DNA of 64,000 nt. Source: Halorubrum ruber (lineage in GTDB: Archaea > Halobacteriota > Halobacteria > Halobacteriales > Haloferacaceae). The position numbers were made by a program, and so were the translations under genes. The notes under the pieces were generated by a model. The model worked only from the letters and a program-made list of their open reading frames with translations. It made no database searches and had not been told where the DNA came from. Below, piece after piece: positions 8,640 through 33,980 of the stretch (positions are counted from its first letter, which is position 1; the number at the start of each line of letters is the position of its first letter). The stretch spans positions 2,899,218-2,963,217 of the forward strand of contig NZ_CP073695.1 in the NCBI RefSeq assembly GCF_018228765.1, written 5' to 3'.

Positions 8640-10445
8640 ATGTCATCGTCAGATCCCGAACCGGTCTCCAGACGCGAGAAGCTCGACGCCCTCCGCGATG
8701 TCGCGAGGTACAATCCGAAATATACGGCGGCAGTTGTTGTGCTCGGCGTCGTCGCTGCTGTACTTGAGGGCGTCGGGCTGAGTTTCATCCTCCCGATTGT
8801 CGAACTCGTTCAGCTCCAAGATCCCGCCGCCGAGGCGGAAGGACTGCTCGCGGTGTTCGTCACAGCCTATCAGGCAGTTGGGATTCCGTTTACGCTGGGA
8901 TACGTCGTGGTTGGCGTGTCGGCCGTGATGGTCGCACGTTACACAGCCAGTTTCTCCGTGGCGTGGTTTCGAGAAGCCTTGCGGACCTACTACATTCGTG
9001 ATCTCCAAACCAGGGCTTTTCGGAACGCATTGAATGCGCGTGTGGAGTATTTCGACAAGGAAGGATCCGACGACATCCTGAACGCAATCGTCACGCAAAC
9101 GTACTACGCTGGGCGGGTTATACAGCGAGGGATCCAAACCTTTGAACAGTTCTTTTTGGCTGGGATATATTTCCTCGTGGCGTTGATCATCGCACCGGCA
9201 CTAACGATCATCACCGGAGTCGTTCTGGGTGGGTTCACGGTGTTCTTCCGGCGCATCCTCGATTCGGGATACGAAGTGGGAGACGAGGTCGCCGAGGCGA
9301 ACGAGAGGCGACAGGAGGCCGCACAGGCTGGTACCCAAGGAATCCGTGACGTGCGAATCTTTGGGCTCGCTGATGAACTATTTGAGGACTTCTCACAGGC
9401 AGTCAACCAGTATACGGACTCACGGATCACGCTACGGCGTAACGAAGCCGCGATCGACAAATTCTACAATCTCGTAGTCGCCGTCTCGGTGTTCGTGCTA
9501 ATCTACTTGGCGTTGACGTTCGCTTCCCTCTCTGTCGGAGAACTGGGCGTATTCCTCTTTGCGATGTTCCGACTCGGGCCGAGAGCGAGTAATGTGAACA
9601 AGCTCTACTATCAAGTTGAAAACGATTTACCGCATCTGGTGAGGACCCAGGAGTTCATCAAAGAGCTGGAGGTCTACGAAGAGCCAAACGAACCGAGCCG
9701 AGAAGTTCCCGAGGAGATTCAACAAGTTGAATTCGATGACGTTCACTTCTCGTACGATAGTAAGGAGAAGGTGCTCCGTGGGATCAACTTCACCGTTGAA
9801 AAGGGAGATTTCGTCGGGTTCGTCGGACAGTCCGGTGCGGGGAAGTCCACAATTGTCTCGCTTCTTGCCCGGCTGTACCCGGTCGATGAGGGAGAGATCA
9901 GAACAAATGGAATCCCGATTGACGAGATGGACATTACTGAGTGGCGAGACCGGCTCTCAATGGTCAGACAGGATCCATTTATATTCAACGATACGCTGCG
10001 GTACAACCTGACCCTCGGAAATCGAGAGGTGTCGGACAAAGAACTCGACCGCGTGTGCTCTATCGCAAAGGTCGACGAATTTATCAACGAGCTACCAGAT
10101 GGGTACGACTCCCTTCTCGGAGACGACGGGATTCGATTGTCGGGCGGCCAGCAACAGCGCATCGCACTTGCGCGGGCGCTCCTCGAGGACGCTGACGTGT
10201 TAATCCTTGACGAGGCAACAAGCGATCTTGACTCGAATCTGGAAAAGCAAGTTCAGCAAGCAATTGAAGAGATGGATCGAGACTACGCCATCGTGACAAT
10301 TGCCCACCGGCTGTCGACAGTGAAAAACGCAGACCGGATTTACACGATCGAGAAGGGTCGGGTCACAGAGACCGGGCAGCACGACGAACTCGTGGAGCGA
10401 GGAGGAAAGTACGCTGAGCTGTACAGGATCCAGTCGAGCCGGTAG
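8640..10445 (+). CDS. ABC transporter, fused permease-ATPase (PglK/MsbA-like flippase)
   Basis: A 601-residue half-transporter. Residues about 1-320 hold the six-helix membrane domain (VVVLGVVAAVLEGVGLSFIL, LGYVVVGVSAVMVARY and others). Residues about 360-600 hold the ATPase with Walker A GQSGAGKST, signature LSGGQQQRIALARA, Walker B VLILDEATSDLD and the switch His in IVTIAHRLS. The order and the glycan context match PglK-type flippases for lipid-linked oligosaccharides and MsbA-like exporters. It probably moves a lipid-linked glycan made by the neighbouring transferases across the membrane. The substrate is inferred from context. Confidence 0.88.
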   Translation: MSSSDPEPVSRREKLDALRDVARYNPKYTAAVVVLGVVAAVLEGVGLSFILPIVELVQLQDPAAEAEGLLAVFVTAYQAVGIPFTLGYVVVGVSAVMVARYTASFSVAWFREALRTYYIRDLQTRAFRNALNARVEYFDKEGSDDILNAIVTQTYYAGRVIQRGIQTFEQFFLAGIYFLVALIIAPALTIITGVVLGGFTVFFRRILDSGYEVGDEVAEANERRQEAAQAGTQGIRDVRIFGLADELFEDFSQAVNQYTDSRITLRRNEAAIDKFYNLVVAVSVFVLIYLALTFASLSVGELGVFLFAMFRLGPRASNVNKLYYQVENDLPHLVRTQEFIKELEVYEEPNEPSREVPEEIQQVEFDDVHFSYDSKEKVLRGINFTVEKGDFVGFVGQSGAGKSTIVSLLARLYPVDEGEIRTNGIPIDEMDITEWRDRLSMVRQDPFIFNDTLRYNLTLGNREVSDKELDRVCSIAKVDEFINELPDGYDSLLGDDGIRLSGGQQQRIALARALLEDADVLILDEATSDLDSNLEKQVQQAIEEMDRDYAIVTIAHRLSTVKNADRIYTIEKGRVTETGQHDELVERGGKYAELYRIQSSR

Positions 10446-11216
10446 TGCTCTATCTCGTTCAAGTTTGCTCTGATTTACTGCTCTGTTGAACCCAGAATTC
10501 GACAGGATAGCGTTACTAAAAAGATGGTAGCGAAGTGAAAAATCGAATATGACTAACTTACTCTTCTGGTTCGCTAAGCGAGCCGCGTCACTATTCAAAA
10601 GAGCTCTGCTGCCAGTCTTACGGCGGTAAGTGATCCGACAGGCCACGGAATTCCTGGCTGGAAGACTGTAACTATTCCACTTTTTGTGGGTTTTATAGGT
10701 GTGACGTACTGTGAGGCCGTAGATTAAATGAGTGAGATAGATCGAGTTCGTGGTCTGTTACAACTCGCTCAAAAGAAATTTCCGATTTTTTAACCCTTTA
10801 CCCGTCGGTTGAGAGATCCTCATGTCGATATAGTTGGGTCCCCTTCGGGAATCTGCGAACGTCTGTGATACGGGTTTACACTGTGCTATCAGTGTCATGC
10901 TCATCGTCTGGGGAAGCGGCATCGGAACACACCAAACTCCTCGAACTACCACATACGTACGCTCAAGGACTGTGCTGGTCGATCCAGACTCATGCGCTGT
11001 CCCCATTGTTAACCGCTCGGCATACTGACTTCACGACACACAAACTGGCCGTTGACTCGCTTTTCATAATATTAAAAATCGAGAGTCTTACAGGCGGCGA
11101 GGACGATAACGACCAATATATCTGGACACCCTTTGTTCAGAGAGCGTACGCCACTGGTACGCCAGCGACTGTGCGTTGCGTAGGATCACGTTCACAATAC
11201 ACAGTTAGAGAAAAGA
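10446..11216. other. Gene-poor 771-bp interval
   Basis: No convincing gene was found between the flippase and the AT-rich block. Base composition drops noticeably in the second half, marking the edge of the low-GC region. One possible very small ORF (10549-10629) is listed separately; other readings lack protein-like character. Confidence 0.6.
10549..10629 (+). CDS. Possible 26-residue amphipathic small protein
   Basis: ATG to TAA encodes MTNLLFWFAKRAASLFKRAL and ends LPVLRR, a basic amphipathic helix-like peptide. It is unusually short, and basic for a haloarchaeon. It may be chance; only its composition speaks for it. Confidence 0.2.
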   Translation: MTNLLFWFAKRAASLFKRALLPVLRR

Positions 11217-12587
11217 TCAAATTTTAAACTTTATCTGAGGAATATTTAAATTAGTATAAGTAAATGAGATCCAAATAGCAATTAATGGGACAACTGGTAG
11301 TTTTTTTCGTATAATATGTTCACCTAGTGTACCTAAATTATAAGCTTCAGACAAAAAGTTGACCGTCCAATTAAAACCGATAGTAGACATAATTAGCCCG
11401 TACACGATTAATCCTAGAGAGATGATGAAGTACGAGGTCAAATCAGTTCTTTTTCCTAGACCTAAAATAACCGAAATTGTTAGGAATACACCATTCATTA
11501 ATCCCTCAAGGATTCTAGGGGTGGCCTCAATGTTCATCCAGTTTTGGAGTTCGAATGGATTTGGGCTTATGAAAAAGTAACCAACCATCAATATTGTATT
11601 AAAGATAGTCAGGACTTCCTTAGTAAACCACAGCATAAAAATGGTAGATATACCAATACCTATCAGAAGTATGTGCGGAGTCCACGTGAGAACACCAAAG
11701 TATATTCCAGTAATCGCGAATGAGTAAAGACGTATAGTAGTAGAAAACACTATTACAACAACGAACAGTAGGTACCGCTTCTCTAGATATAGACGTAGAG
11801 AAAGCACTACAAGGAATACCGCAGTAATATCCTTAAGAAAAGAGCTCGAATAGTACATAGCCGTCGGACTGATCATTAAAAGGTAGAATACGATATCACC
11901 GGACGCTTGAATGTGCCTAGATAAATATTTATTTGTCATATCTCTCATCATAAACGCCGTAGATATCCATAGTATAGTATTAAGCACCAATATAAAAAGA
12001 GGGCTTCCAAGTTCAAATGATTTGTAAATGGGAAGATATAATATTGGAAATGTATCGTACACGCTGGAGGGTGTGAAGAACACATTATTTACTTCAATAA
12101 TACTGTCGGAGGTTAATCGAACGAGATGGTAAAAGTAAGATATTAGATTTGGGAAATCTTCAGAGACCCTCCGGAAATACCTCACAGCGTCTGGACTAAC
12201 TATTGGTGTCGAATCATACAAAGTGTTGAGTAATGTACCCAACAAGTAGACGAAGGTGAATATCACTAGTTTCACTGAGGAGGTATGCGAATAAAGTAGT
12301 GTGATCCCAACCACAAAATAGATGCTAAACCCGACTGTAAAATGTAGTTTAAACAATGGGAATATTGTGGGAAGAAGTAGGATCAGATATATAACCCATT
12401 TTGAATCTTCTGTTGCGACGATTCTGTTATACAGCCATGCCAGAGTAAATATAATTGGATATCCTAAAATTACAGCTTTAATGTTTCCAAATGATAGATA
12501 TCCGAGAGTTGTAAGAAAAATAATAGATGTGGTTATGTATGCTAATTTATTTGAGTCAAGATCCCATACGCGTTTCATATTAATCAT
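11217..12587 (-). CDS. Polytopic membrane protein of the glycan locus (possible polymerase-like)
   Basis: A 456-residue protein with about ten to twelve hydrophobic helices (for example TSIIFLTTLGYLSFGNIKAV, VIYLILLLPTIFPLFKL, LVIFTFVYLLGTLLNTL, GVFLTISVILGLG). A loop with conserved-looking polar residues follows helix five (SPDAVRYFRRVSEDFPNL). The topology and neighbours resemble Wzy-type polymerases or membrane transferases, but no diagnostic motif is recognised, so the role is open. Codon use is strikingly AT-rich compared with the flanks. It overlaps the upstream glycosyltransferase by 8 bp, so the two are co-transcribed. A slightly later ATG at 12578 is an alternative start. Confidence 0.75.
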   Translation of the reverse strand: MINMKRVWDLDSNKLAYITTSIIFLTTLGYLSFGNIKAVILGYPIIFTLAWLYNRIVATEDSKWVIYLILLLPTIFPLFKLHFTVGFSIYFVVGITLLYSHTSSVKLVIFTFVYLLGTLLNTLYDSTPIVSPDAVRYFRRVSEDFPNLISYFYHLVRLTSDSIIEVNNVFFTPSSVYDTFPILYLPIYKSFELGSPLFILVLNTILWISTAFMMRDMTNKYLSRHIQASGDIVFYLLMISPTAMYYSSSFLKDITAVFLVVLSLRLYLEKRYLLFVVVIVFSTTIRLYSFAITGIYFGVLTWTPHILLIGIGISTIFMLWFTKEVLTIFNTILMVGYFFISPNPFELQNWMNIEATPRILEGLMNGVFLTISVILGLGKRTDLTSYFIISLGLIVYGLIMSTIGFNWTVNFLSEAYNLGTLGEHIIRKKLPVVPLIAIWISFTYTNLNIPQIKFKI

Positions 12588-13365
12588 TGAGGCGCCTACT
12601 CAATTTTGAGGAGATCTTACCAACAGTCCATCCTACTAATTGGTTGAAAAATTCGCAGGCTTCTGTGAATTCCTTCCGTTGGATCGAAGCTAATAGAGCT
12701 CTAATTGTGAGATAACATGTCATTAACCCATATTTTCCGCCCAAGAACCCTTGGTGAAAAGTCGCAGGATGGCGCCCCATATCGTTGTGCTCAAATGGTA
12801 CTTGGTGATTGAATAACCATAACCAATCGTTCTTTTCAACATGTTGTCGGATATATTCATCTTCGAGGACATCTAATTCATTTGGTATCTCGATGTCTTT
12901 TACTGCTTGGTGACGGATTACCGTTGAATGAGTACCTCCCCTATGAGCTCTCCATCGGACCCAATTGTGCGGGTCACCCAACGTATTAGATTCTTTAATA
13001 CCCTGTACACCACCGACTAGTGGGGAAATAGAACTTTCAATCGTTGTCAAAAAGTCTTTAGAAATTAGAACGTCATCATCAAGAAACAAAAACCATTTTG
13101 ATGTTACATTATTGATCGCCTCTTGTCTTGCTTGCGCCAAATTAGATTTTGATTGGATTACCAAGACATCCCAGCCGAATTCATCAGCACATTGTTCTAT
13201 TATATCCACAGTATTATCGGAGCTATAATTATCGATGATAATTAATTTTTGAATTGTGATTTCTGAGACCAGTTCACTTTCCCTAAGACTGTTCAATGAT
13301 TCTGAGATAACATCCTCGCTGTTCCAAGTAGGCATACAGACTTCAATGTTGTCCATAATACCCAT
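12580..13365 (-). CDS. Family 2 glycosyltransferase
   Basis: A 261-residue GT-A fold transferase. The nucleotide-binding start EVCMPTWNSEDVISESLNSL (residues 8-27), the KLIIIDNYSSDNT motif and the metal-binding LFLDDDVL (near 93-100) are typical of GT2. It lacks membrane helices, so it would act on the cytoplasmic face, adding a sugar to a lipid-linked acceptor. The alternative start MDNIEV three codons downstream is equally possible. Codon use is AT-rich like its neighbours. Donor and acceptor sugars cannot be read from sequence. Confidence 0.88.
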   Translation of the reverse strand: MGIMDNIEVCMPTWNSEDVISESLNSLRESELVSEITIQKLIIIDNYSSDNTVDIIEQCADEFGWDVLVIQSKSNLAQARQEAINNVTSKWFLFLDDDVLISKDFLTTIESSISPLVGGVQGIKESNTLGDPHNWVRWRAHRGGTHSTVIRHQAVKDIEIPNELDVLEDEYIRQHVEKNDWLWLFNHQVPFEHNDMGRHPATFHQGFLGGKYGLMTCYLTIRALLASIQRKEFTEACEFFNQLVGWTVGKISSKLSRRLND

Positions 13366-13564
13366 ATGTTACTTTAACAGTGGCTAAATCACTATTCTTA
13401 ATGAACTTGACTCGATTATCTAACATTTTAGTTTAAGTACATTTGGATTGAGCTGTGATAGTTTGTGACCAGCTACCGTCACCAAATGAGGTTGAACGAC
13501 ATAATACGTAAGTAAACGAGTTGTCATTGCTATATTTGCCTCTCATTGTTAGTAGTACAATTAT

Positions 13565-14758
13565 CTATTGAAGATACCCTAACTCTCGCAGCCTTTCTTC
13601 GGTGCTCTGTTCTAGGTTTCTTGAATCGCTCTCTGTGTGTGCTGGCTTTTCTATGCGATCTAAATATGATCTACATGAATCTATACTCATCTCAGTGTTT
13701 CCATATTCACGAGGTCCAGAGAGGTAGAATGGTACGTTATCAAATAGATGCTGACGCATATATTCTCGCTTAGCACTTCGAAGTAACTTTCCAAGTAGAA
13801 TAGCAGATCTGTTGATCTTTCCAGATTGGGGGAAAACATAACCTCCGTTATAATCCCACACGGATTCAAATGATAGTTCACCATTGATTATTTGTGAACT
13901 GGGAAGAACCGATTTATTATAGAAACACGCACCACATTCTGCTATAGATTCGGTTGTTATATCTCGTCCTGGTAAGTGTAGATCATTTACATCTAGTAAT
14001 TCTAAAATAGTCGGGAACAGATCAATATGACGCAGTACACCGTCGGTAACTCTCTTATTATTTAGATCTGGATGAAAGAACACAGTAGGAACATAAGCAA
14101 GATTTGGATGTACAGGACTATTATGCCCTAAGCAGCCTTCTTCACCAAGGAGTTCGCCGTGATCACTTGTGTATATAATTAGAGTGTCATCTAAAAGTCC
14201 GCGAGCCTTCAATTGCTCTACTCGGCTGTTGAAGTACTCGATATCACGCTCAACAGCAATTTCGTATTCTTGCCGAAACCTGGATTGGGGCGCACCTTTT
14301 CGATCGCGATAATATTCCCAAGCATTTCCTAGATATTCTCCGTATGGAGCATGTCCCCCTGGTCCACGTTCGACAAATATAAACGGTGTTTCAATATCGG
14401 ATAGCGAATCTGAGTGAGAGGTGGTAGTAGCTAATGTGCTGTCCAAGATACTCATGTCATCTGGTTCTTCATTAAACCTCTCGTTTATTGTGTTAGTAAA
14501 TCGCGCCTCAACATCAGATAAATTGAACAGTGATGGCAGAGCCGGATCGAGTTTATCACCGAATTGGTCAACTCCATGTTGGGGTGGATGTAATCCCGTA
14601 ACGATAGATGAGAAACTTGTTGGGGTGTGAATCCCCGCTGCTATTGTCTTATAAAGCTGACCACATTCTGCCAATGATTCCGGTAGTGTATCCCATCGCA
14701 CTGCGTCACCAATGTATAGGAAGACGTTTGATATATCGATGTCCGGCAACTGAGCCAT
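13565..14758 (-). CDS. Sulfatase/alkaline-phosphatase superfamily protein
   Basis: A 397-residue protein of the sulfatase fold. The N-terminal metal site VFLYIGDAVRWDTL replaces the usual D-D, the nucleophile position is HTPTSFSSIVTGLHPP (a Thr/Ser rather than the C/S-x-P-x-R of true sulfatases), and the C-terminal metal motif is IYTSDHGELLGEEG followed by LGHNSP. The absence of the C-x-P-x-R motif argues against a sulfatase; phosphoglycerol or phosphoethanolamine transferase-like or hydrolase activity is more likely. Such proteins recur in haloarchaeal exopolysaccharide and glycosylation loci. No signal peptide is evident, suggesting a cytoplasmic protein. It belongs to the AT-rich block. 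Confidence 0.82.
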   Translation of the reverse strand: MAQLPDIDISNVFLYIGDAVRWDTLPESLAECGQLYKTIAAGIHTPTSFSSIVTGLHPPQHGVDQFGDKLDPALPSLFNLSDVEARFTNTINERFNEEPDDMSILDSTLATTTSHSDSLSDIETPFIFVERGPGGHAPYGEYLGNAWEYYRDRKGAPQSRFRQEYEIAVERDIEYFNSRVEQLKARGLLDDTLIIYTSDHGELLGEEGCLGHNSPVHPNLAYVPTVFFHPDLNNKRVTDGVLRHIDLFPTILELLDVNDLHLPGRDITTESIAECGACFYNKSVLPSSQIINGELSFESVWDYNGGYVFPQSGKINRSAILLGKLLRSAKREYMRQHLFDNVPFYLSGPREYGNTEMSIDSCRSYLDRIEKPAHTESDSRNLEQSTEERLRELGYLQ

Positions 14759-14878
14759 GTTAAACGATAATAATTCAAGTACAGATATAACATCTGTGAT
14801 TCACATGTTACACGTGACCGATGAAGAAACACTATCATACTATTGCCTGGTGAGGAATTGAATAATGACAAAATATTT

Positions 14879-16066
14879 ATGGTAAAACTCAACGGCTGGC
14901 CAAACACATTTGATGAGAGGGCCAAAGCTCTTGATGCGAGTGTCGACGATCTTGTAGTCGTCCGTCCAAAACCTATCGGCGATAAAAATAAACATGAGAG
15001 TATTGAAAGCGTGACGACATATAATTTGTATCCCCAGAGAGGAGCATTCGTCAAGCCGAGTTGGGTAAAGCCATTTGTCTTCTCAATACACGTCTTACAG
15101 GCTGTCTTACTGTTGATATATCTCCAATTCAAGCAAGAACGTCCATCAGTTATTCATGCGTTTGATTACGCCCTTGGCGGGTTCGCGGGAGCAGTCGTCT
15201 CACAACTCTTCTCAGTCCCACTAATCGTGAGTGTGCGTGGTTTGAAAGAACCAATATATAACGAGATGATCGAGGAGGAAGGTACGTATCGAGCGCGAAT
15301 CAAATATCAGATCCTTACAACAATGACACGGTTTGTCCTCGTGAGAGCAAATCATATCGTTACAAAATCACCGTATCAAGTTAAATTCGTTCGTGAAAGA
15401 TTCGGAATCGATCCGGGGTTCACTACTTTGCCTACCGGCGTTGATTTCGATACATTCGATCCGGAGGCCGTAACAAAAGAAAACGCGCTTAGAGATCTAC
15501 TCTCAAGTGAGGGACACGACATCGAGAGCAACGATAGAATTATCCTGTTTCTGGGAAAACTCGTTCAAGAGAAAGGTCCAGACACAGTCCTCGAACTACT
15601 AGATCAGAGTAGTTCGGAGGTGTCCGAAGATATCGTATTTGTATTTATTGGAGAGTTCCGTAGTGAATCGTTTGAACGGCAGTTTAGGGAACTACAAAAA
15701 GAAGTCCCACATAAAACGATACTCTATCCTAATCGGGTCCCGTTTGAGGACGTGCCCGATATTTTGTTCGACGCAGACGGAGTCATTCTTTTGTCTAAAT
15801 CCGGCACCGAAGGCGCTCCTCGAGTTCTTCAAGAAGCGTGCGCGATGGAAACGTCTATCATCGCCTCGGAGGTGGATGGAATAAAAGGAGCATTCGCGGG
15901 TCTACCAGGATGTCACTTAATTGGCCGGACAGATCATATCGCATTCGCGAACGCCGTCAACAACGCCGTAGAAGAGTCCGTTTCAAGAGCGCGTTTTGCC
16001 GAGCAGTTCGACATGTACGAGAATTATTCCCAGTATGCGGACATCTATCGCCAATTGAGTGATTGA
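14879..16066 (+). CDS. Family 4-type glycosyltransferase (GT-B)
   Basis: About 395 residues with two Rossmann domains. The acceptor domain contains a membrane-associating stretch (VFSIHVLQAVLLLIYLQF). The donor domain has IILFLGKLVQEKGPDTVLEL and the E-x7-E region SGTEGAPRVLQEACAMETSI, the hallmark of GT4 retaining transferases. ATG 14879 (MVKLNGWPNTF) is preferred; an upstream in-frame TTG at 14843 adds 12 residues. It is divergently placed from the sulfatase-like gene across a 120-bp promoter interval. Base composition is intermediate between the AT-rich block and the GC-rich flank. The sugar specificity is unknown. Confidence 0.88.
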   Translation: MVKLNGWPNTFDERAKALDASVDDLVVVRPKPIGDKNKHESIESVTTYNLYPQRGAFVKPSWVKPFVFSIHVLQAVLLLIYLQFKQERPSVIHAFDYALGGFAGAVVSQLFSVPLIVSVRGLKEPIYNEMIEEEGTYRARIKYQILTTMTRFVLVRANHIVTKSPYQVKFVRERFGIDPGFTTLPTGVDFDTFDPEAVTKENALRDLLSSEGHDIESNDRIILFLGKLVQEKGPDTVLELLDQSSSEVSEDIVFVFIGEFRSESFERQFRELQKEVPHKTILYPNRVPFEDVPDILFDADGVILLSKSGTEGAPRVLQEACAMETSIIASEVDGIKGAFAGLPGCHLIGRTDHIAFANAVNNAVEESVSRARFAEQFDMYENYSQYADIYRQLSD

Positions 16067-27168: not shown

Positions 27169-27696
27169 TCACGAAAACTCGACGCGGACAGGCGCGTCGG
27201 GCCGGTAGTCATCGGGGTGACCGCCGCCTCGCTCGCCGAGAAAGACAATCGCGTCGAGGGCTCCACGCGTGAACCGTGCCTCGTACGACCAGTAGAACTC
27301 GTCTTCGATATCGTCGCTCCGGCCGTGAAACTCGAAGCTGCCGTGCATGTTGTGGTCGAGCCAGAGTTCCTCGTCGAGGGTCTGGGGATCCGGCGCTCGA
27401 AGGCCGATACCACGTTGGATGCGCTCATCTGGGGTTGCGTCCTCACAAAACGAGACGTACGCCTCCCACGAGTCGAAGCCGTGGTCGGCGGCCGCTGTCT
27501 GTTTTTCTTCGGGCGTCTTCTCACGGAACTCCCGCTCGCGTCGCAGGAGCCGTCCGTCTGTGGTCAGCTTGTACGCTTGCATGGCTGGCCGACCGATATC
27601 TTTCGTCTGCCACTCGATATCGGACGGGCTGGCGTCGGCTGGAAACCTCGGCAGCCTGACCCCATCCGCGACCAGCACGTCGTCGTACAGGCCCAT
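27169..27696 (-). CDS. Uncharacterised haloarchaeal protein
   Basis: A 175-residue soluble, acidic protein beginning MGLYDDVLVADGVRLPRFPA. It contains IEWQTKDIGRPAMQAYKLTT, a block rich in Trp/His/Phe (DEELWLDHNMHGSFEFHG) and a C-terminal WSYEARFTRGALD. I recognise no family with certainty. ATG 27696 is chosen, as an upstream start adds 11 residues of different composition. It converges on uppP. Confidence 0.65.
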   Translation of the reverse strand: MGLYDDVLVADGVRLPRFPADASPSDIEWQTKDIGRPAMQAYKLTTDGRLLRREREFREKTPEEKQTAAADHGFDSWEAYVSFCEDATPDERIQRGIGLRAPDPQTLDEELWLDHNMHGSFEFHGRSDDIEDEFYWSYEARFTRGALDAIVFLGERGGGHPDDYRPDAPVRVEFS

Positions 27697-27816
27697 GAAC
27701 GGGCATCGGTGAATGCTGATAAAAAGCATCCGCCCGGATTGACAGTGACTGGGTTGGTGATCGGTGACAATACGGATAGGCCGGGAAGGCTGACCACCTG
27801 TGTAGGCGTTCCGAGA

Positions 27817-28290
27817 CTACGGCAAGCCGTCCTGCGCGTTCACCAGGCTCTCGTCACCGTTCTCGACCCCCGTCCACCACGTCTTCAGCACGGCGATCGT
27901 GACGAGTTCGGGCGGTCGTTCAATGCCGATACAGGATCGCCGATGTACATCGAGGTCGTGCGGCGGATGAAAATGCCGGACCGGCTTCGGGGTGGCTTCG
28001 TTCGCCGCTTCCCGCCCGAATCTGAACTCCAGTCCGTCCTCCCGATAGTGGTACTTGTAATCGCCGTTCTCCCACCACTGAATATCGAAGTACCCGCCTC
28101 GTTCGTGGATACCGGGGGTAACGGTGACTCGTGCCGCTCTGACGTCCGCTCCGTCCCGCCGCGTGAACGGTTGTCCCTTCCCATACCGGAATCGGACGTC
28201 GACGACGCCGTCACCGAGTTGTCGGCGTACTTGTTCCACGCTCTCGTCGATCGCGTCCGAATCGAGCGGCGAACCGTTCCCCAGCCCCAT
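27817..28290 (-). CDS. His-rich small protein of a winged-helix cassette (pair 1)
   Basis: A 157-residue acidic protein: MGLGNGSPLDSDAIDESVEQ, a beta-rich core (RAARVTVTPGIHERGGYFDI, QWWENGDYKYHYREDGLEF) and a histidine cluster VRHFHPPHDLD. The TAATG overlap (1 bp) with the winged-helix gene upstream means obligate co-expression. The His-x-His-Pro cluster and two-gene context resemble the pair at 29077-30044 and the TumE-like pair at 33224-33980. A toxin role, with the winged-helix protein as antitoxin, is a hypothesis from these parallels. Confidence 0.6.
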   Translation of the reverse strand: MGLGNGSPLDSDAIDESVEQVRRQLGDGVVDVRFRYGKGQPFTRRDGADVRAARVTVTPGIHERGGYFDIQWWENGDYKYHYREDGLEFRFGREAANEATPKPVRHFHPPHDLDVHRRSCIGIERPPELVTIAVLKTWWTGVENGDESLVNAQDGLP

Positions 28291-28967
28291 TACTCGAGTG
28301 GGAGCTGATCGCCGGTGGGGGTCGTCTGCGTCCCCGTCCGTCCGTCTCCCTGTTCGGTTACGGTCGGCGCCCGCTCCTTCGCTTCTCGGAAGCGGTACGC
28401 CGCTCTGAGGTGGCTGAGTTCTCGTTTCGCCGTCCGCCAGTGAGAGACGGCGTCGAGTTCGTCCTGATCGAGGTCCCTGTCCGAAACCAGAAGCTCCTCC
28501 GGATCGGGCGCGTCGTATTCGGCTTCGTACGCCGCGAGTTCCCGTTTTATTCGCTGGATTTGGTCGACGAGCGTGTCGCTCCCGGCGAGCCGCCGGATCT
28601 GTTTGAGAAGGTGCCACTCCGGGTCGCGACTGTACAACTTCCCGGAGCCCGTCTGCTGACTTCTGACGATGCCCTCCTCGCTGAGCTTGTTGAGCGCCGT
28701 CCTGGCTTTTGTCTCCGAGACGAGCGCCGTCTCTGCGATATCGCCCGCCGATTTCGGCGTCGTCGTTCTGTCGATCACCGCGCGAATTCGCTCGTCCGCA
28801 GTGGTCTCGTGTTTCCACTCTGCGGCCGCGAACTCGTCGACGTCCTCGAAATCATCGTCGTCGACGGCGAACGGTTCGACGTCGGCCGCGGTTACCGGTT
28901 CGTCCGGCAGCTCCGCCTCGGTGGGGAACTCGTCGGGGCCGTCAGCGGACGGTGGCTCGTCTGTCAT
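28290..28967 (-). CDS. Winged-helix DNA-binding protein (DUF7342-like; pair 1)
   Basis: A 225-residue acidic protein. After a disordered N-terminus of about 50 residues comes a winged helix: ETTADERIRAVIDRTTTPKS, AGDIAETALVSETKARTALN, then a wing SGKLYSRDPEWHLLK. The C-terminal 100 residues are helical (RELSHLRAAYRFREAKERAP), probably dimerising. This arrangement is frequent in haloarchaeal single-domain regulators placed before a small partner gene. An AT-rich TATATTTTG lies about 30 bp upstream of the ATG, and a perfect palindrome lies about 86 bp upstream. Confidence 0.72.
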   Translation of the reverse strand: MTDEPPSADGPDEFPTEAELPDEPVTAADVEPFAVDDDDFEDVDEFAAAEWKHETTADERIRAVIDRTTTPKSAGDIAETALVSETKARTALNKLSEEGIVRSQQTGSGKLYSRDPEWHLLKQIRRLAGSDTLVDQIQRIKRELAAYEAEYDAPDPEELLVSDRDLDQDELDAVSHWRTAKRELSHLRAAYRFREAKERAPTVTEQGDGRTGTQTTPTGDQLPLE

Positions 28968-29052
28968 ACGCTACGCTTCGTCCTAAAAACACATATATTT
29001 TGCTGGCACAGATATACGTGCTGAGGATATCGTGCTCGAGAGCATTATGAAC

Positions 29053-29068
29053 GCGATAATATTATCGC
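29053..29068. promoter_or_regulatory. 16-bp perfect palindrome between the two cassettes
   Basis: GCGATAATATTATCGC is fully self-complementary. It lies 86 bp upstream of the pair 1 start and 9 bp beyond the end of pair 2. It could be an operator for the pair 1 winged-helix protein, or part of a terminator for pair 2. Confidence 0.5.
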
Positions 29069-29076
29069 CCACATAA

Positions 29077-29514
29077 TTAGATCGTGCCCGACTCCCACAG
29101 CTCGCCGACCCGCTCGTCGACCCACGGCAGCACAGTCCCCTCGATGACACGCGTGAGGTCCGTCGCGTACCCCCGGTCGACCGCGGCTGTCGTCTCGGCG
29201 TCCGGCAGCGGATGGAAGTGGTCCCGCGTGTTGTGCGGCTGGTCGTGGCGGTCCCATCGACACTGCTGCCGGTCGCCGGCGCGCATCCCGTGGTACGAGA
29301 CGTGAAAGTCACCGTTCGTGTACGCGCGAACTTCGAGCGAGACGCCGTCGACTGACTCGGGATAGTACTCGACGTCGAGCGTGACGACAAGGCTTTCCAG
29401 CTTGTTCGACGGGAACAGCGACGTCTGGCGCACCTCGTCCCGTCGACCGAACGCCCGAGCGAGATAGCGAAGCGTCGCCTCGTCGACGGATCGCGACCGG
29501 TCAAGACCGGTCAC
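29077..29514 (-). CDS. His-rich small protein of a winged-helix cassette (pair 2)
   Basis: A 145-residue acidic protein starting at GTG 29514, overlapping the upstream gene by 4 bp. A beta-rich core (VVTLDVEYYPESVDGVSLEV, GDFHVSYHGMRAGD) is followed by the histidine cluster RWDRHDQPHNTRDHFHPLPD. The cluster ending HFHP parallels pair 1 (HFHPP) and the HHRHTH cluster of the TumE-like protein at 33224. No enzyme family is recognised. Confidence 0.6.
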   Translation of the reverse strand: MTGLDRSRSVDEATLRYLARAFGRRDEVRQTSLFPSNKLESLVVTLDVEYYPESVDGVSLEVRAYTNGDFHVSYHGMRAGDRQQCRWDRHDQPHNTRDHFHPLPDAETTAAVDRGYATDLTRVIEGTVLPWVDERVGELWESGTI

Positions 29515-30044
29515 GCGGCGTTCTCCTCACGAAACGAGTCCGAACCGCGATCGCGGCGGACCGCCTCCAGCCGGTCGATCCGTTCCCTGACGGTGTGCCA
29601 CTCGCTCAACGCGAGCCACACCGTCTCGACGTCGTCGTACTCCGCGTGGTCGAACGCGTCCACGTCGGTCGGTGACTCGGCGTCGAAGCGCTCCCGGAAC
29701 GCGGACTCGCGCTCGGTGAGCTCGGCGAGCCTCTCGTGAAGCTCGTCGCGTGGCAGGGCTTCGAGCCGATTCCGAAGACGCCACTCGAAGTACGACTCGT
29801 TGCGGGCGAACGTGAGCGGCGACTCCGAGACGCGTTCGACGACGCCGATGTCGGCCAGCCGCTTGAGGTGCCGCCGAGCGGTGTCCGGGGCGCACGAGGC
29901 GCGCTCAGCGATTGTCGACACGCCCGCCGGCTCGTACAACTGGAGCGCGACCCGGTACACGCGCTCGTCGGCGGGCTTAGCGTCGAGGTCCGCGCTGAAC
30001 CCCTCGGCGAGTCCGAACTCCTCGCCGGGCTCGTCGGCAGGCAT
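29511..30044 (-). CDS. Winged-helix DNA-binding protein (DUF7342-like; pair 2)
   Basis: A 177-residue protein. The winged helix covers about residues 26-90 (ADERVYRVALQLYEPAGVST, IAERASCAPDTARRHLKRLA, IGVVERVSESPLTFARNESY) and is followed by a helical tail rich in Glu/Arg (LAELTERESAFRERFDAE, LSEWHTVRERIDRLEAVRRD). Organisation is the same as the pair 1 regulator but sequence is quite diverged, so the duplication is old. Upstream an AT-rich CTATATAATT is a likely TATA element. Confidence 0.72.
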   Translation of the reverse strand: MPADEPGEEFGLAEGFSADLDAKPADERVYRVALQLYEPAGVSTIAERASCAPDTARRHLKRLADIGVVERVSESPLTFARNESYFEWRLRNRLEALPRDELHERLAELTERESAFRERFDAESPTDVDAFDHAEYDDVETVWLALSEWHTVRERIDRLEAVRRDRGSDSFREENAA

Positions 30045-30149
30045 ACTCGTCAGTAGCGGCAGCGACTATATAATTCTGGTGTCGGCGAACTATTTAGCCT
30101 GGTCGGCCGACGTAGCAGCGGATTCGCGTGAAATGAGAGTCCCGTCGAC

Positions 30150-30886
30150 TCAGTCGGCGCCTGTTCCCGCCGCCGTGTGAGACGCCGACAGACCCGTGTC
30201 GGTACCGGCGTCGCCCCCAGACCCCGCCTCCGCCGCCAGCGTCTCCACGTTCGCGAACACGAAGCCCGCGAACCCGACCCGGAGCAGGAGATCGAGATAC
30301 TCTAAGGTCACCGTCGCGGTGAACTGATCGAACAGCCCGGCGATCTGGAGCATCGCCCACGCGATCAGCACGCCGAACGCGAACAGCGCGAGGTTCCGCG
30401 TCTTCTTATAAAACAGCTCCCGTTCGGGCGCCTGCCGCGCCGCCGCGCTCGCCACCGGCCCGAAGAACAGCCCGACGAGCGTCACGTAGCCGGCGAGGAT
30501 TCCGAGGGTGCCCGCCGTCGCGAGCGGGCCCGCGAACACCTCCGCGAAGTCGTACCCGACCCGCATCACGACGGTGATCGCGACGATCCCCCGACGTACC
30601 ACCGGCTCACCCCCGCGACGAACGCCGCGAACCCGAACAGGAAGGGGTACGCCACGTAGTCGCTGAGCAGTTGCCCGGCCTCCAGCGTTCCGGACCCGAC
30701 GTCGAACGTCCCGATCCCGGCGCCCCAGCTCGCGATCCCGACGCCCGCGAACGCGACGACCGCGACGAACGGGTAGCAGTACCGCCGGAGGTCGGCCGGC
30801 TTGCGCCGCGCCAGCACGAGTAGCACGACCGCGGAGACGGCGTAGATCCCCGCGGAGGCGAACCGCACCGTCGACGGCTCAATCAT
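30150..30886 (-). pseudogene. Seven-helix opsin-like protein lacking the retinal lysine (frameshifted)
   Basis: Two abutting frames encode a microbial-rhodopsin-like seven-helix protein; one extra base in the five-base run 30588-30592 would join them into 245 residues. Helix C reads LLSDYVAYPFLFGFAAFVAG (compare the rhodopsin R-Y-x-D-W-x-x-T-T-P block). Helix F is RNLALFAFGVLIAWAML, and helix G is EYLDLLLRVGFAGFVFANVE. The helix G Asp is kept, but the Schiff-base Lys four residues later is Arg (codon CGG, 30279-30281). CGG to a Lys codon needs at least two changes, so this is not a single base error. It overlaps the transducer gene by 8 bp, as sensory rhodopsin genes do. Without the lysine it should not bind retinal in the usual way. 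Confidence 0.72.
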
Positions 30887-33158: not shown

Positions 33159-33218
33159 GTTGTGGTCGAAACACAACAATAAGCGTTAACATTGTTGAGT
33201 TCGTATCACAACATACGA
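33159..33218. promoter_or_regulatory. Three inverted repeats at the TumE-like cassette promoter
   Basis: GTTGTG/CACAAC (33159-33164 and 33172-33177), CAACAAT/ATTGTTG (33174-33180 and 33191-33197) and TCGTAT/ATACGA (33201-33206 and 33213-33218) lie in the last 65 bp before the start codon. This density of dyads suggests an autoregulatory operator for the cassette's DNA-binding protein. Confidence 0.6.
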
Positions 33219-33223
33219 GACAG

Positions 33224-33532
33224 ATGCCCGCTACGGTCGTGTACCGGGAAGAGTCCGAGAAATCGGACGGCAGTCGGTATGAGATGATCGCGTGGCAGGT
33301 CCCGGAAAGCGAGGAGTACCCGGAGGGCGTGAAGTACAGTTTCCAGGACATGGACGCCGACGGCGACACGCTACTCCGGTACGACAACGCGCCGCACCAC
33401 CGAGACGTCGGGCGACACCATCGGCACACGCACACTGGAGAAGTCACGAAACTGGACTTCACCGGTCTCGCGGACCTGATCGACGACTTCCAATCCGAGG
33501 TAAACGAGATCCATGACCGACGAACCGACTGA
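33224..33532 (+). CDS. TumE-like (DUF6516-type) putative toxin
   Basis: A 102-residue protein: MPATVVYREESEKSDGSRYE, a core EGVKYSFQDMDADGDTLLRY, then DNAPHHRDVGRHHRHTHTGE, a dense histidine cluster (residues about 62-76). The DNAPHH...H-x-H pattern is that of the DUF6516/TumE family, proposed toxins of two-gene TumA/TumE systems. The 3' end overlaps the following winged-helix gene by 20 bp. Assignment rests on motif memory, so moderately sure; toxicity is not shown by sequence. Confidence 0.7.
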   Translation: MPATVVYREESEKSDGSRYEMIAWQVPESEEYPEGVKYSFQDMDADGDTLLRYDNAPHHRDVGRHHRHTHTGEVTKLDFTGLADLIDDFQSEVNEIHDRRTD

Positions 33533-33980
33533 TACCGACCCCACCCACGACGAATTTACACCGGACCCGAGCGACGCCGAGTACCCGTCGACGCTCCGTA
33601 TCACGTCGCTACCGGCGGAACAGGCACAGACGGCGGCGATCGAGCGCGCCGAGCGCTGGGAGGACGGCGAGGCAGTCCCGCACGTGGTCAACTTCGAGGA
33701 CCGTGCGCGGCTCCGCCAGCTGCTCACGGACCGCCGGATGGAGCTGCTGGAGGCGGTGATGGAACGACCGCCCGAGAGCATCCGCGCGCTGGCGGACCGG
33801 CTCGACCGAGACGTCCACGTCGTCCACGACGACCTGTCGCTTTTGGCCGACTACGACATCGTCCACTTCGAGGCGGACGGCCGCGCGAAGCGGCCGTATG
33901 TGCCCTACGAGACGGTTCGGATCGAAGTCGAGTTCGGGCTGCCCCGCGGCGACGAGTCGGAGTCGACCGCGTCCGCGTGA
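33513..33980 (+). CDS. TumA-like DNA-binding protein (putative antitoxin)
   Basis: A 155-residue protein. Residues about 70-125 form a winged helix: RRMELLEAVMERPPESIRAL, ADRLDRDVHVVHDDLSLLAD, YDIVHFEADGRAKRPYVPYE, like the HVO_A0114-type regulators. The N-terminus is acidic and disordered. It overlaps the TumE-like gene by 20 bp and thus is translated with it. It is likely to bind the dyads at 33159-33218 and neutralise its partner; both points are inferred from the family arrangement. Confidence 0.74.
   Translation: MTDEPTDTDPTHDEFTPDPSDAEYPSTLRITSLPAEQAQTAAIERAERWEDGEAVPHVVNFEDRARLRQLLTDRRMELLEAVMERPPESIRALADRLDRDVHVVHDDLSLLADYDIVHFEADGRAKRPYVPYETVRIEVEFGLPRGDESESTASA

What the first reader, a model, noticed from the sequence alone, without database searches (positions are those of the whole stretch)
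27817..30044. Tandem winged-helix plus histidine-cluster cassettes, possibly a new two-gene toxin-like system
Pairs 28290-28967/27817-28290 and 29511-30044/29077-29514 have the same plan: winged helix first, then an overlapping small beta-rich protein ending in an HFHP histidine cluster. A third unit at 33224-33980 has the gene order reversed and is TumE/TumA-like with HHRHTH. The shared design, overlaps and palindromic upstream sites (29053-29068; 33159-33218) argue for self-regulated two-gene systems. The first two are strongly diverged from each other, implying independent maintenance.
Basis: inference. Interest (0 to 1): 0.75.

Follow-up and report, generated by a model that had tools for sequence, protein, structure and literature searches.

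The report
Haloarchaeal TumE-like two-gene toxin–antitoxin cassettes
Two neighbouring gene pairs in a salt-loving archaeon belong to a large, unnamed, mobile family of two-gene units whose small protein is a distant relative of the growth-stopping toxin TumE and whose partner is a DNA-binding protein, so they are most likely toxin–antitoxin modules that current databases miss.

Summary
Units A (27817-28967) and B (29077-30044) each consist of a DUF7342 winged-helix gene followed by an overlapping gene for a ~150-aa His-rich protein that matches no Pfam, NCBIfam, PHROGs or PADLOC family (E<0.1). A and B are diverged members of one haloarchaeal family: 42 of 53 haloarchaeal genomes, 0 of 242 others, 119 plasmid records. 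Of 80 full-length copies in 24 genomes, 79 lie directly downstream of a DUF7342 gene. Partner trees mirror each other (r=0.90) and both genes are under purifying selection. A and B form a 2.4-kb block absent from the same site in two relatives. Profile comparison links the small proteins to TumE, a validated translation-inhibiting toxin (hhalign 88.6%, E 2.7e-6; controls <=1.2%); predicted folds agree. Unit C (33224-33980) is classical TumE plus HVO_A0114. Best reading: a divergent TumE-superfamily branch with a DUF7342 antitoxin, a new variant of a known kind. Toxicity, neutralisation and binding are inferred. The palindrome at 29053-29068 is probably not unit A's operator (in three relatives it lies just upstream of an archaeal ATPase start); GCAC-N8-GTGC at 29006-29021 is the better candidate.

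The parts
28290..28967 (-). Unit A: DUF7342 winged-helix protein (225 aa), proposed antitoxin and repressor
   Evidence: PF24033 86.4 bits; orthologues precede the A small gene in other genomes
27817..28290 (-). Unit A: small His-rich protein (157 aa), proposed TumE-like toxin; core YKYHYRED..FRFG..HFHP
   Evidence: no family in Pfam/NCBIfam/PHROGs/PADLOC at E<0.1; same family as unit B small protein; TumE relationship
29006..29021 (.). Candidate operator of unit A: inverted repeat GCAC-N8-GTGC, next to a TATA-like stretch (AAAATATATG)
   Evidence: the half-sites and ATAT core are conserved or nearly so in the seven A orthologues aligned although the rest of the upstream DNA diverges
29511..30044 (-). 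Unit B: DUF7342 winged-helix protein (177 aa), proposed antitoxin and repressor
   Evidence: PF24033 84.5 bits
29077..29514 (-). Unit B: small His-rich protein (145 aa, GTG start), proposed TumE-like toxin; core FHVSYH..CRWDRH..HFHP
   Evidence: AlphaFold2 pLDDT 88.5, helix, six strands, helix; family and TumE relationship
30045..30097 (-). Unit B promoter region, TATA-like GAATTATATAG; moves with unit B
   Evidence: conserved among B orthologues; the 1.0-kb block 29088-30097 is 90.7% identical at a different position in genome G152
27783..30223 (.). Segment carrying A and B that is absent between orf30150 and orf27169 in genomes G114 and G152 (about 78 bp between those genes there)
   Evidence: blastn breakpoints and gene order
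29053..29068 (.). Perfect 16-bp palindrome GCGATAATATTATCGC; probably a relic of an archaeal ATPase 5' region rather than unit A's operator
   Evidence: found a few bases upstream of an ATPase start in G108, G114 and G152
33224..33532 (+). Unit C: TumE-family protein (102 aa)
   Evidence: PF20126 71.6 bits; AlphaFold2 pLDDT 91.2
33513..33980 (+). Unit C: HVO_A0114-family winged-helix partner (155 aa)
   Evidence: PF25212 112.5 bits
33159..33212 (.). Inverted repeat upstream of unit C (22-nt arms, 77% complementary), possible operator
   Evidence: outer arms GTTGTGG/CCACAAC-like also in L078

Best explanation
Units A and B are type II toxin-antitoxin modules of a haloarchaea-specific branch of the TumE superfamily. 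The second gene encodes the toxin: a ~150-aa alpha+beta protein (helix, antiparallel beta-sheet, helix) whose conserved core Y-x-x-H-[YW]-x-[ED] ... R-[WYF]-[DG] ... H-x-H corresponds to that of TumE, so it probably stops growth by attacking translation, perhaps as an RNase. The first gene, the DUF7342 winged-helix protein, is the antitoxin: its N-terminal domain binds the promoter and represses the operon, and its C-terminal helical half probably binds and masks the toxin. Overlapping, probably coupled reading frames keep the two products in balance. The unit moves as a block with its promoter. Shown here: gene pairing and order, family membership, remote homology to TumE, co-evolution, purifying selection, mobility. 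Inferred: toxicity, translation as target, neutralisation, DNA binding, the division of labour within DUF7342.
For: (1) Family: iterative HMMs place A, B and all other copies in one family. (2) TumE homology: a profile built before any TumE locus had been fetched finds 16 TumE proteins at E 8e-5 to 8e-3 among 2767 ORFs; apart from fragments of the family itself every weak hit is TumE, and nothing is found in reversed sequences; hhalign 88.6%, E 2.7e-6; reversed, column-shuffled and winged-helix controls <=1.2%. (3) Shared motif and matching order of the final strands and helix; no PDB sequence relative, and the TumE paper likewise reports no confident PDB match (PMC10584680). (4) Pairing: 79 of 80 full-length small genes sit directly downstream of DUF7342, whereas 44 of 125 DUF7342 genes lack this partner; 15 of 21 such loci inspected carry, intact or damaged, a diverged class-II partner (hhalign 94.6% to the small family). 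(5) Mirror-tree r 0.90, best of 2000 permutations 0.22. (6) dN/dS 0.15-0.23 for all four genes. (7) Mobility: changing flanks, an empty site, relocation of B with its promoter, 119 plasmid records. (8) In G152 the same site holds B beside other TA-like genes.
Against: No experiment. hhalign aligns only about 36 columns with TumE, and neither direct model superposition nor co-folding was possible. Three loci (L020, L024, L049) have an intact small gene beside a DUF7342 gene that is truncated or frameshifted, which a strict toxin should not tolerate. They all keep a C-terminal part of DUF7342, but assembly errors or silent genes are not excluded. No bacterial or viral homologue of the small family was seen. 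A regulator paired with a regulated non-toxic protein would give much of the same pattern.
Confidence: 0.72

Rival explanations
1. The pair is a two-gene regulatory unit, not a toxin system: DUF7342 is a repressor and the small protein a ligand- or nucleic-acid-binding co-regulator (sensor or anti-repressor) that tunes it.
For: Winged helix comes first, genes overlap and co-evolve; purifying selection on both; three loci keep an intact small gene beside a broken DUF7342.
Against: The small protein's closest known relative is a validated toxin. The units are mobile, vary in copy number (0-11 per genome in the 24-genome sample), occur on plasmids and carry no constant target gene.
Confidence: 0.17
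2. The pair is an anti-virus abortive-infection module: same biochemistry as TumE-TumA, but kept because the toxin fires on infection. This is a refinement of the best explanation, so the confidences overlap.
For: Variable, mobile, plasmid-borne, sits at a site that in G152 holds other TA-like genes; PDC-M44B, a PADLOC candidate model, gives a weak hit to the window's TumE.
Against: No PADLOC hit for the small proteins; no test with a virus was possible.
Confidence: 0.25
3. The resemblance to TumE is convergent: a short beta-hairpin with an RWD/HxH motif that could bind metal or RNA in an otherwise unrelated protein.
For: Only about 36 aligned columns; middling VIA-align matches to E2-like alpha-beta-alpha folds such as Atg10 (Z 7.0) for unit B but not for the TumE model.
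Against: Same element order, two-gene context and a winged-helix partner as in unit C; decoy controls are clean; Z under 8 is common by chance.
Confidence: 0.12

Closest known systems
TumE-TumA (DUF6516, PF20126; Durairaj et al. 2023, PMC10584680)
   Same: small alpha+beta protein with two helices against an antiparallel sheet; Y-x-Y-H ... RWD ... HxH core; two-gene operon with a putative DNA-binding partner; toxin mostly downstream
   Different: the small proteins are not detected by the Pfam or NCBIfam TumE models; longer; the partner is DUF7342, whereas the paper names a remote RelB homologue for one cluster and leaves most partners unnamed; no activity shown
DUF7342 (PF24033)
   Same: both winged-helix partners are clear members
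   Different: listed as function unknown and in no paper of the library; here it is tied to a TumE-like partner
HVO_A0114 / TumE pair (PF25212 + PF20126), unit C in this window
   Same: TumE-superfamily protein with a winged-helix partner in haloarchaea
   Different: gene order reversed; different winged-helix family
ArsR-COG3832 predicted TA (Makarova et al. 2009, PMC2701414)
   Same: ArsR-like regulator paired with a small protein in unevenly distributed two-gene units
   Different: COG3832 is a START-domain protein; no relation tested here

Membership tests
TumE superfamily (toxin) | significant sequence or profile similarity to TumE/DUF6516 | tested here: met
   hhalign 88.6%, E 2.7e-6, larger alignments 76.1%, E 2.3e-5 with controls <=1.2%; hmmsearch. 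Not detected by Pfam PF20126, so a superfamily-level relative only
TumE superfamily (toxin) | alpha+beta fold, two helices packed on an antiparallel beta-sheet | tested here: inconclusive
   unit B model: helix, six strands, helix, pLDDT 88.5; TumE C: six strands, helix. Element order agrees with the published description, but the models were not superposed
TumE superfamily (toxin) | two-gene operon with a putative DNA-binding partner | tested here: met
   79 of 80 full-length copies with DUF7342 directly upstream; gap mostly -4 or -1 nt
TumE superfamily (toxin) | expression stops growth and inhibits translation | not testable with these tools
   needs experiment
Type II toxin-antitoxin system | toxin gene not found without its antitoxin gene | tested here: inconclusive
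   met at gene-pair level, but three loci have an intact small gene beside a damaged DUF7342
Type II toxin-antitoxin system | antitoxin protein binds and neutralises toxin | not testable with these tools
   co-evolution only (r 0.90)
Type II toxin-antitoxin system | autoregulation through an operator upstream | tested here: inconclusive
   conserved inverted repeat for A; none found upstream of B
Type II toxin-antitoxin system | patchy, mobile distribution | tested here: met
DUF7342 (PF24033) | score over curated cut-off | tested here: met
   86.4 and 84.5 versus 31.6 bits
Classical TumE (PF20126), units A and B | score over curated cut-off 23.4 bits | tested here: not met
   no hit for either small protein
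Classical TumE (PF20126), unit C | score over curated cut-off | tested here: met
   71.6 bits

The most novel reading that the evidence does not exclude
DUF7342 plus its small partner, together with the class-II partner of the core DUF7342 subfamily, is a haloarchaea-wide toxin-antitoxin superfamily, with up to 11 copies of the small gene per genome in the sample, unnamed in any library searched. TumE would be its only characterised relative, and the antitoxin's C-terminal half alone would neutralise.
Probability: 0.6. Interest if true: 0.62.

Novelty: new variant of a known kind. Interest (0 to 1): 0.52.

Why it matters
It gives a testable function to a widespread DUF7342 family and to many haloarchaeal proteins annotated only as hypothetical. 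It would extend the recently found TumE toxins to a large archaeal branch with another type of antitoxin, in organisms with good genetics (Haloferax volcanii), where few toxin–antitoxin systems are characterised (own knowledge). It also ties the conserved H, R and HxH residues of both families together as candidate active-site residues of a toxin whose biochemistry is unproven.

Tried and rejected
Foldseek against PDB and the viral library gave no significant match. VIA-align gave middling matches to E2-like folds (Atg10 Z 7.0, ubiquitin-conjugating enzymes Z 4-5) that the TumE model does not share, so they are not used. The palindrome 29053-29068 as unit A's operator was rejected. A recent tandem duplication of A and B was rejected: 19% identity between the small proteins, separate orthologue sets, seen in tandem only here and in the Halorubrum sodomense loci. 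Viral origin: no phage or IMG/VR match. No paper in the library names DUF7342 or HVO_A0114; DUF6516 occurs only in PMC10584680, and TumE-TumA there and once more in PMC12225799, which I did not read. Supplementary files of the TumE paper could not be opened, so whether one of its seven clusters already includes haloarchaeal relatives is not known.

Full report
What is there. The window lies in a 3.02-Mb haloarchaeal genome, very close to Halorubrum judging by its best named relatives. Units A, B and C are real at the stated coordinates. Both A and B start with a DUF7342 winged-helix gene (PF24033, 86.4 and 84.5 bits) and continue, with 1 or 4 nt of overlap, into a gene for a 157- or 145-aa His-rich protein that matches no Pfam, NCBIfam, PHROGs or PADLOC family at E below 0.1. 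Unit C is an ordinary TumE (PF20126, 71.6 bits) followed by an HVO_A0114 winged-helix protein (PF25212, 112.5 bits).

One family. An iterative profile from the unit B protein recovers unit A and the other copies. Across 32 diverse members the core is conserved, with an invariant R and an invariant H in a Y-x-x-H-[YW]-x-[ED] ... R-[WYF] ... H-x-H pattern. In phylum-wide sampling the family is found in 42 of 53 haloarchaeal genomes and in none of 242 other genomes. In the family-level sample a single-protein search finds it in 103 of 170. It is on 119 plasmid records, mostly annotated hypothetical in the rows shown. Close-relative searches found none in phage records or IMG/VR.

Pairing. In 24 genomes 79 of 80 full-length small genes lie directly downstream of DUF7342; the exception is a partial match. 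The most frequent gaps are -4 and -1 nt. Conversely, 44 of 125 DUF7342 genes lack this partner. Of 21 such loci inspected, 15, including the seventh DUF7342 gene of this genome, are followed instead by a diverged class-II protein, intact or damaged, with the motif GWHQD..H..LG..HFQ. That class is related to the small family (hhalign 94.6%, over 114 columns). So all seven DUF7342 genes of this genome that pass the cut-off have a partner. Trees of the two partners over 51 pairs agree (r 0.90 against at most 0.22 in 2000 permutations). dN/dS is 0.15-0.23 for all four genes.

Relation to TumE. A profile built before TumE loci were fetched hits 16 TumE proteins at E 8e-5 to 8e-3. Every weak hit in the ORF set is TumE, apart from fragments of the family itself, and reversed sequences give none. 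Profile-profile comparison gives 88.6%, E 2.7e-6, or 76.1%, E 2.3e-5 with larger alignments, against 0.0-1.2% for reversed, column-shuffled and winged-helix controls. Class II against TumE is weaker (46.5%, E 2e-4) but aligns the same motif. AlphaFold2 gives unit B a helix, six strands and a final helix (pLDDT 88.5), and TumE C the same closing series of strands and helix (91.2); this haloarchaeal TumE lacks the N-terminal helix. This fits the published description of TumE as two helices on an antiparallel sheet with no confident PDB match (PMC10584680). I could not superpose the models.

Mobility. Close relatives of A and of B sit in changing surroundings. In this genome and in Halorubrum sodomense both lie between orf30150 and orf27169. 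In G114 and G152 those two genes are about 78 bp apart, so A and B are a segment of about 2.4 kb, window 27783-30223, that those genomes lack at this place. In G152 the B block, from about 50 bp upstream of its start, lies on the other side of orf27169, 90.7% identical, followed by an ATPase and MazF- and VapB-like genes (these names are mine, read from the translations).

Regulation. The perfect palindrome at 29053-29068 recurs exactly in only five of 51 genus genomes. In G108, G114 and G152 it lies a few bases upstream of the likely start of an archaeal ATPase gene, and A orthologues elsewhere lack it. I read it as a leftover of such a gene. The repeat GCAC-N8-GTGC at 29006-29021, beside a TATA-like stretch, keeps its core in the seven A orthologues aligned and is the better candidate. 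Upstream of C there is a 22-nt inverted repeat. B shows none, only a conserved TATA-like region.

How it works (inferred). The small protein is a TumE-like toxin, DUF7342 its antitoxin and repressor. In three loci DUF7342 is damaged while a C-terminal part and an intact small gene remain. This fits a neutralising C-terminal half, but it could also mean that the small protein is harmless. These cases are the best evidence against the model.

Verdict. A real, well-conserved system; a new variant of a known kind. The novelty is the size and the unnamed state of the haloarchaeal branch and the link between DUF7342 and TumE, not the principle.

Noticed in passing
27169-27729: orf27169 (186 aa, no Pfam family) is found in 16 of 52 genus genomes and is next to unit B in several unrelated places (L016, L028, L122, L124) as well as at this site; it may be a third travelling gene.
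   Followed up: partly
L001 (G000:C1:213534-216986): The core DUF7342 subfamily carries a class-II small partner with motif GWHQD..H..LG..HFQ, itself a diverged relative of the small family.
   Followed up: partly
29053-29068; L152, L153, L156: Exact palindrome GCGATAATATTATCGC just upstream of archaeal ATPase gene starts in three genomes; possibly the operator of that ATPase family.
   Followed up: partly
L113:5000-9001: In genome G152 the site after unit B holds VapB-like, ATPase and MazF-like genes: a likely hotspot for toxin-antitoxin genes.
   Followed up: no
10001-16000: GC drops to 38-45% against 65-75% in most of the right half of the window, suggesting a foreign island.
   Followed up: no
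29077-29514: VIA-align's best matches for the unit B model are E2-like folds (Atg10 Z 7.0); not significant, but worth testing once a structure exists.
   Followed up: no
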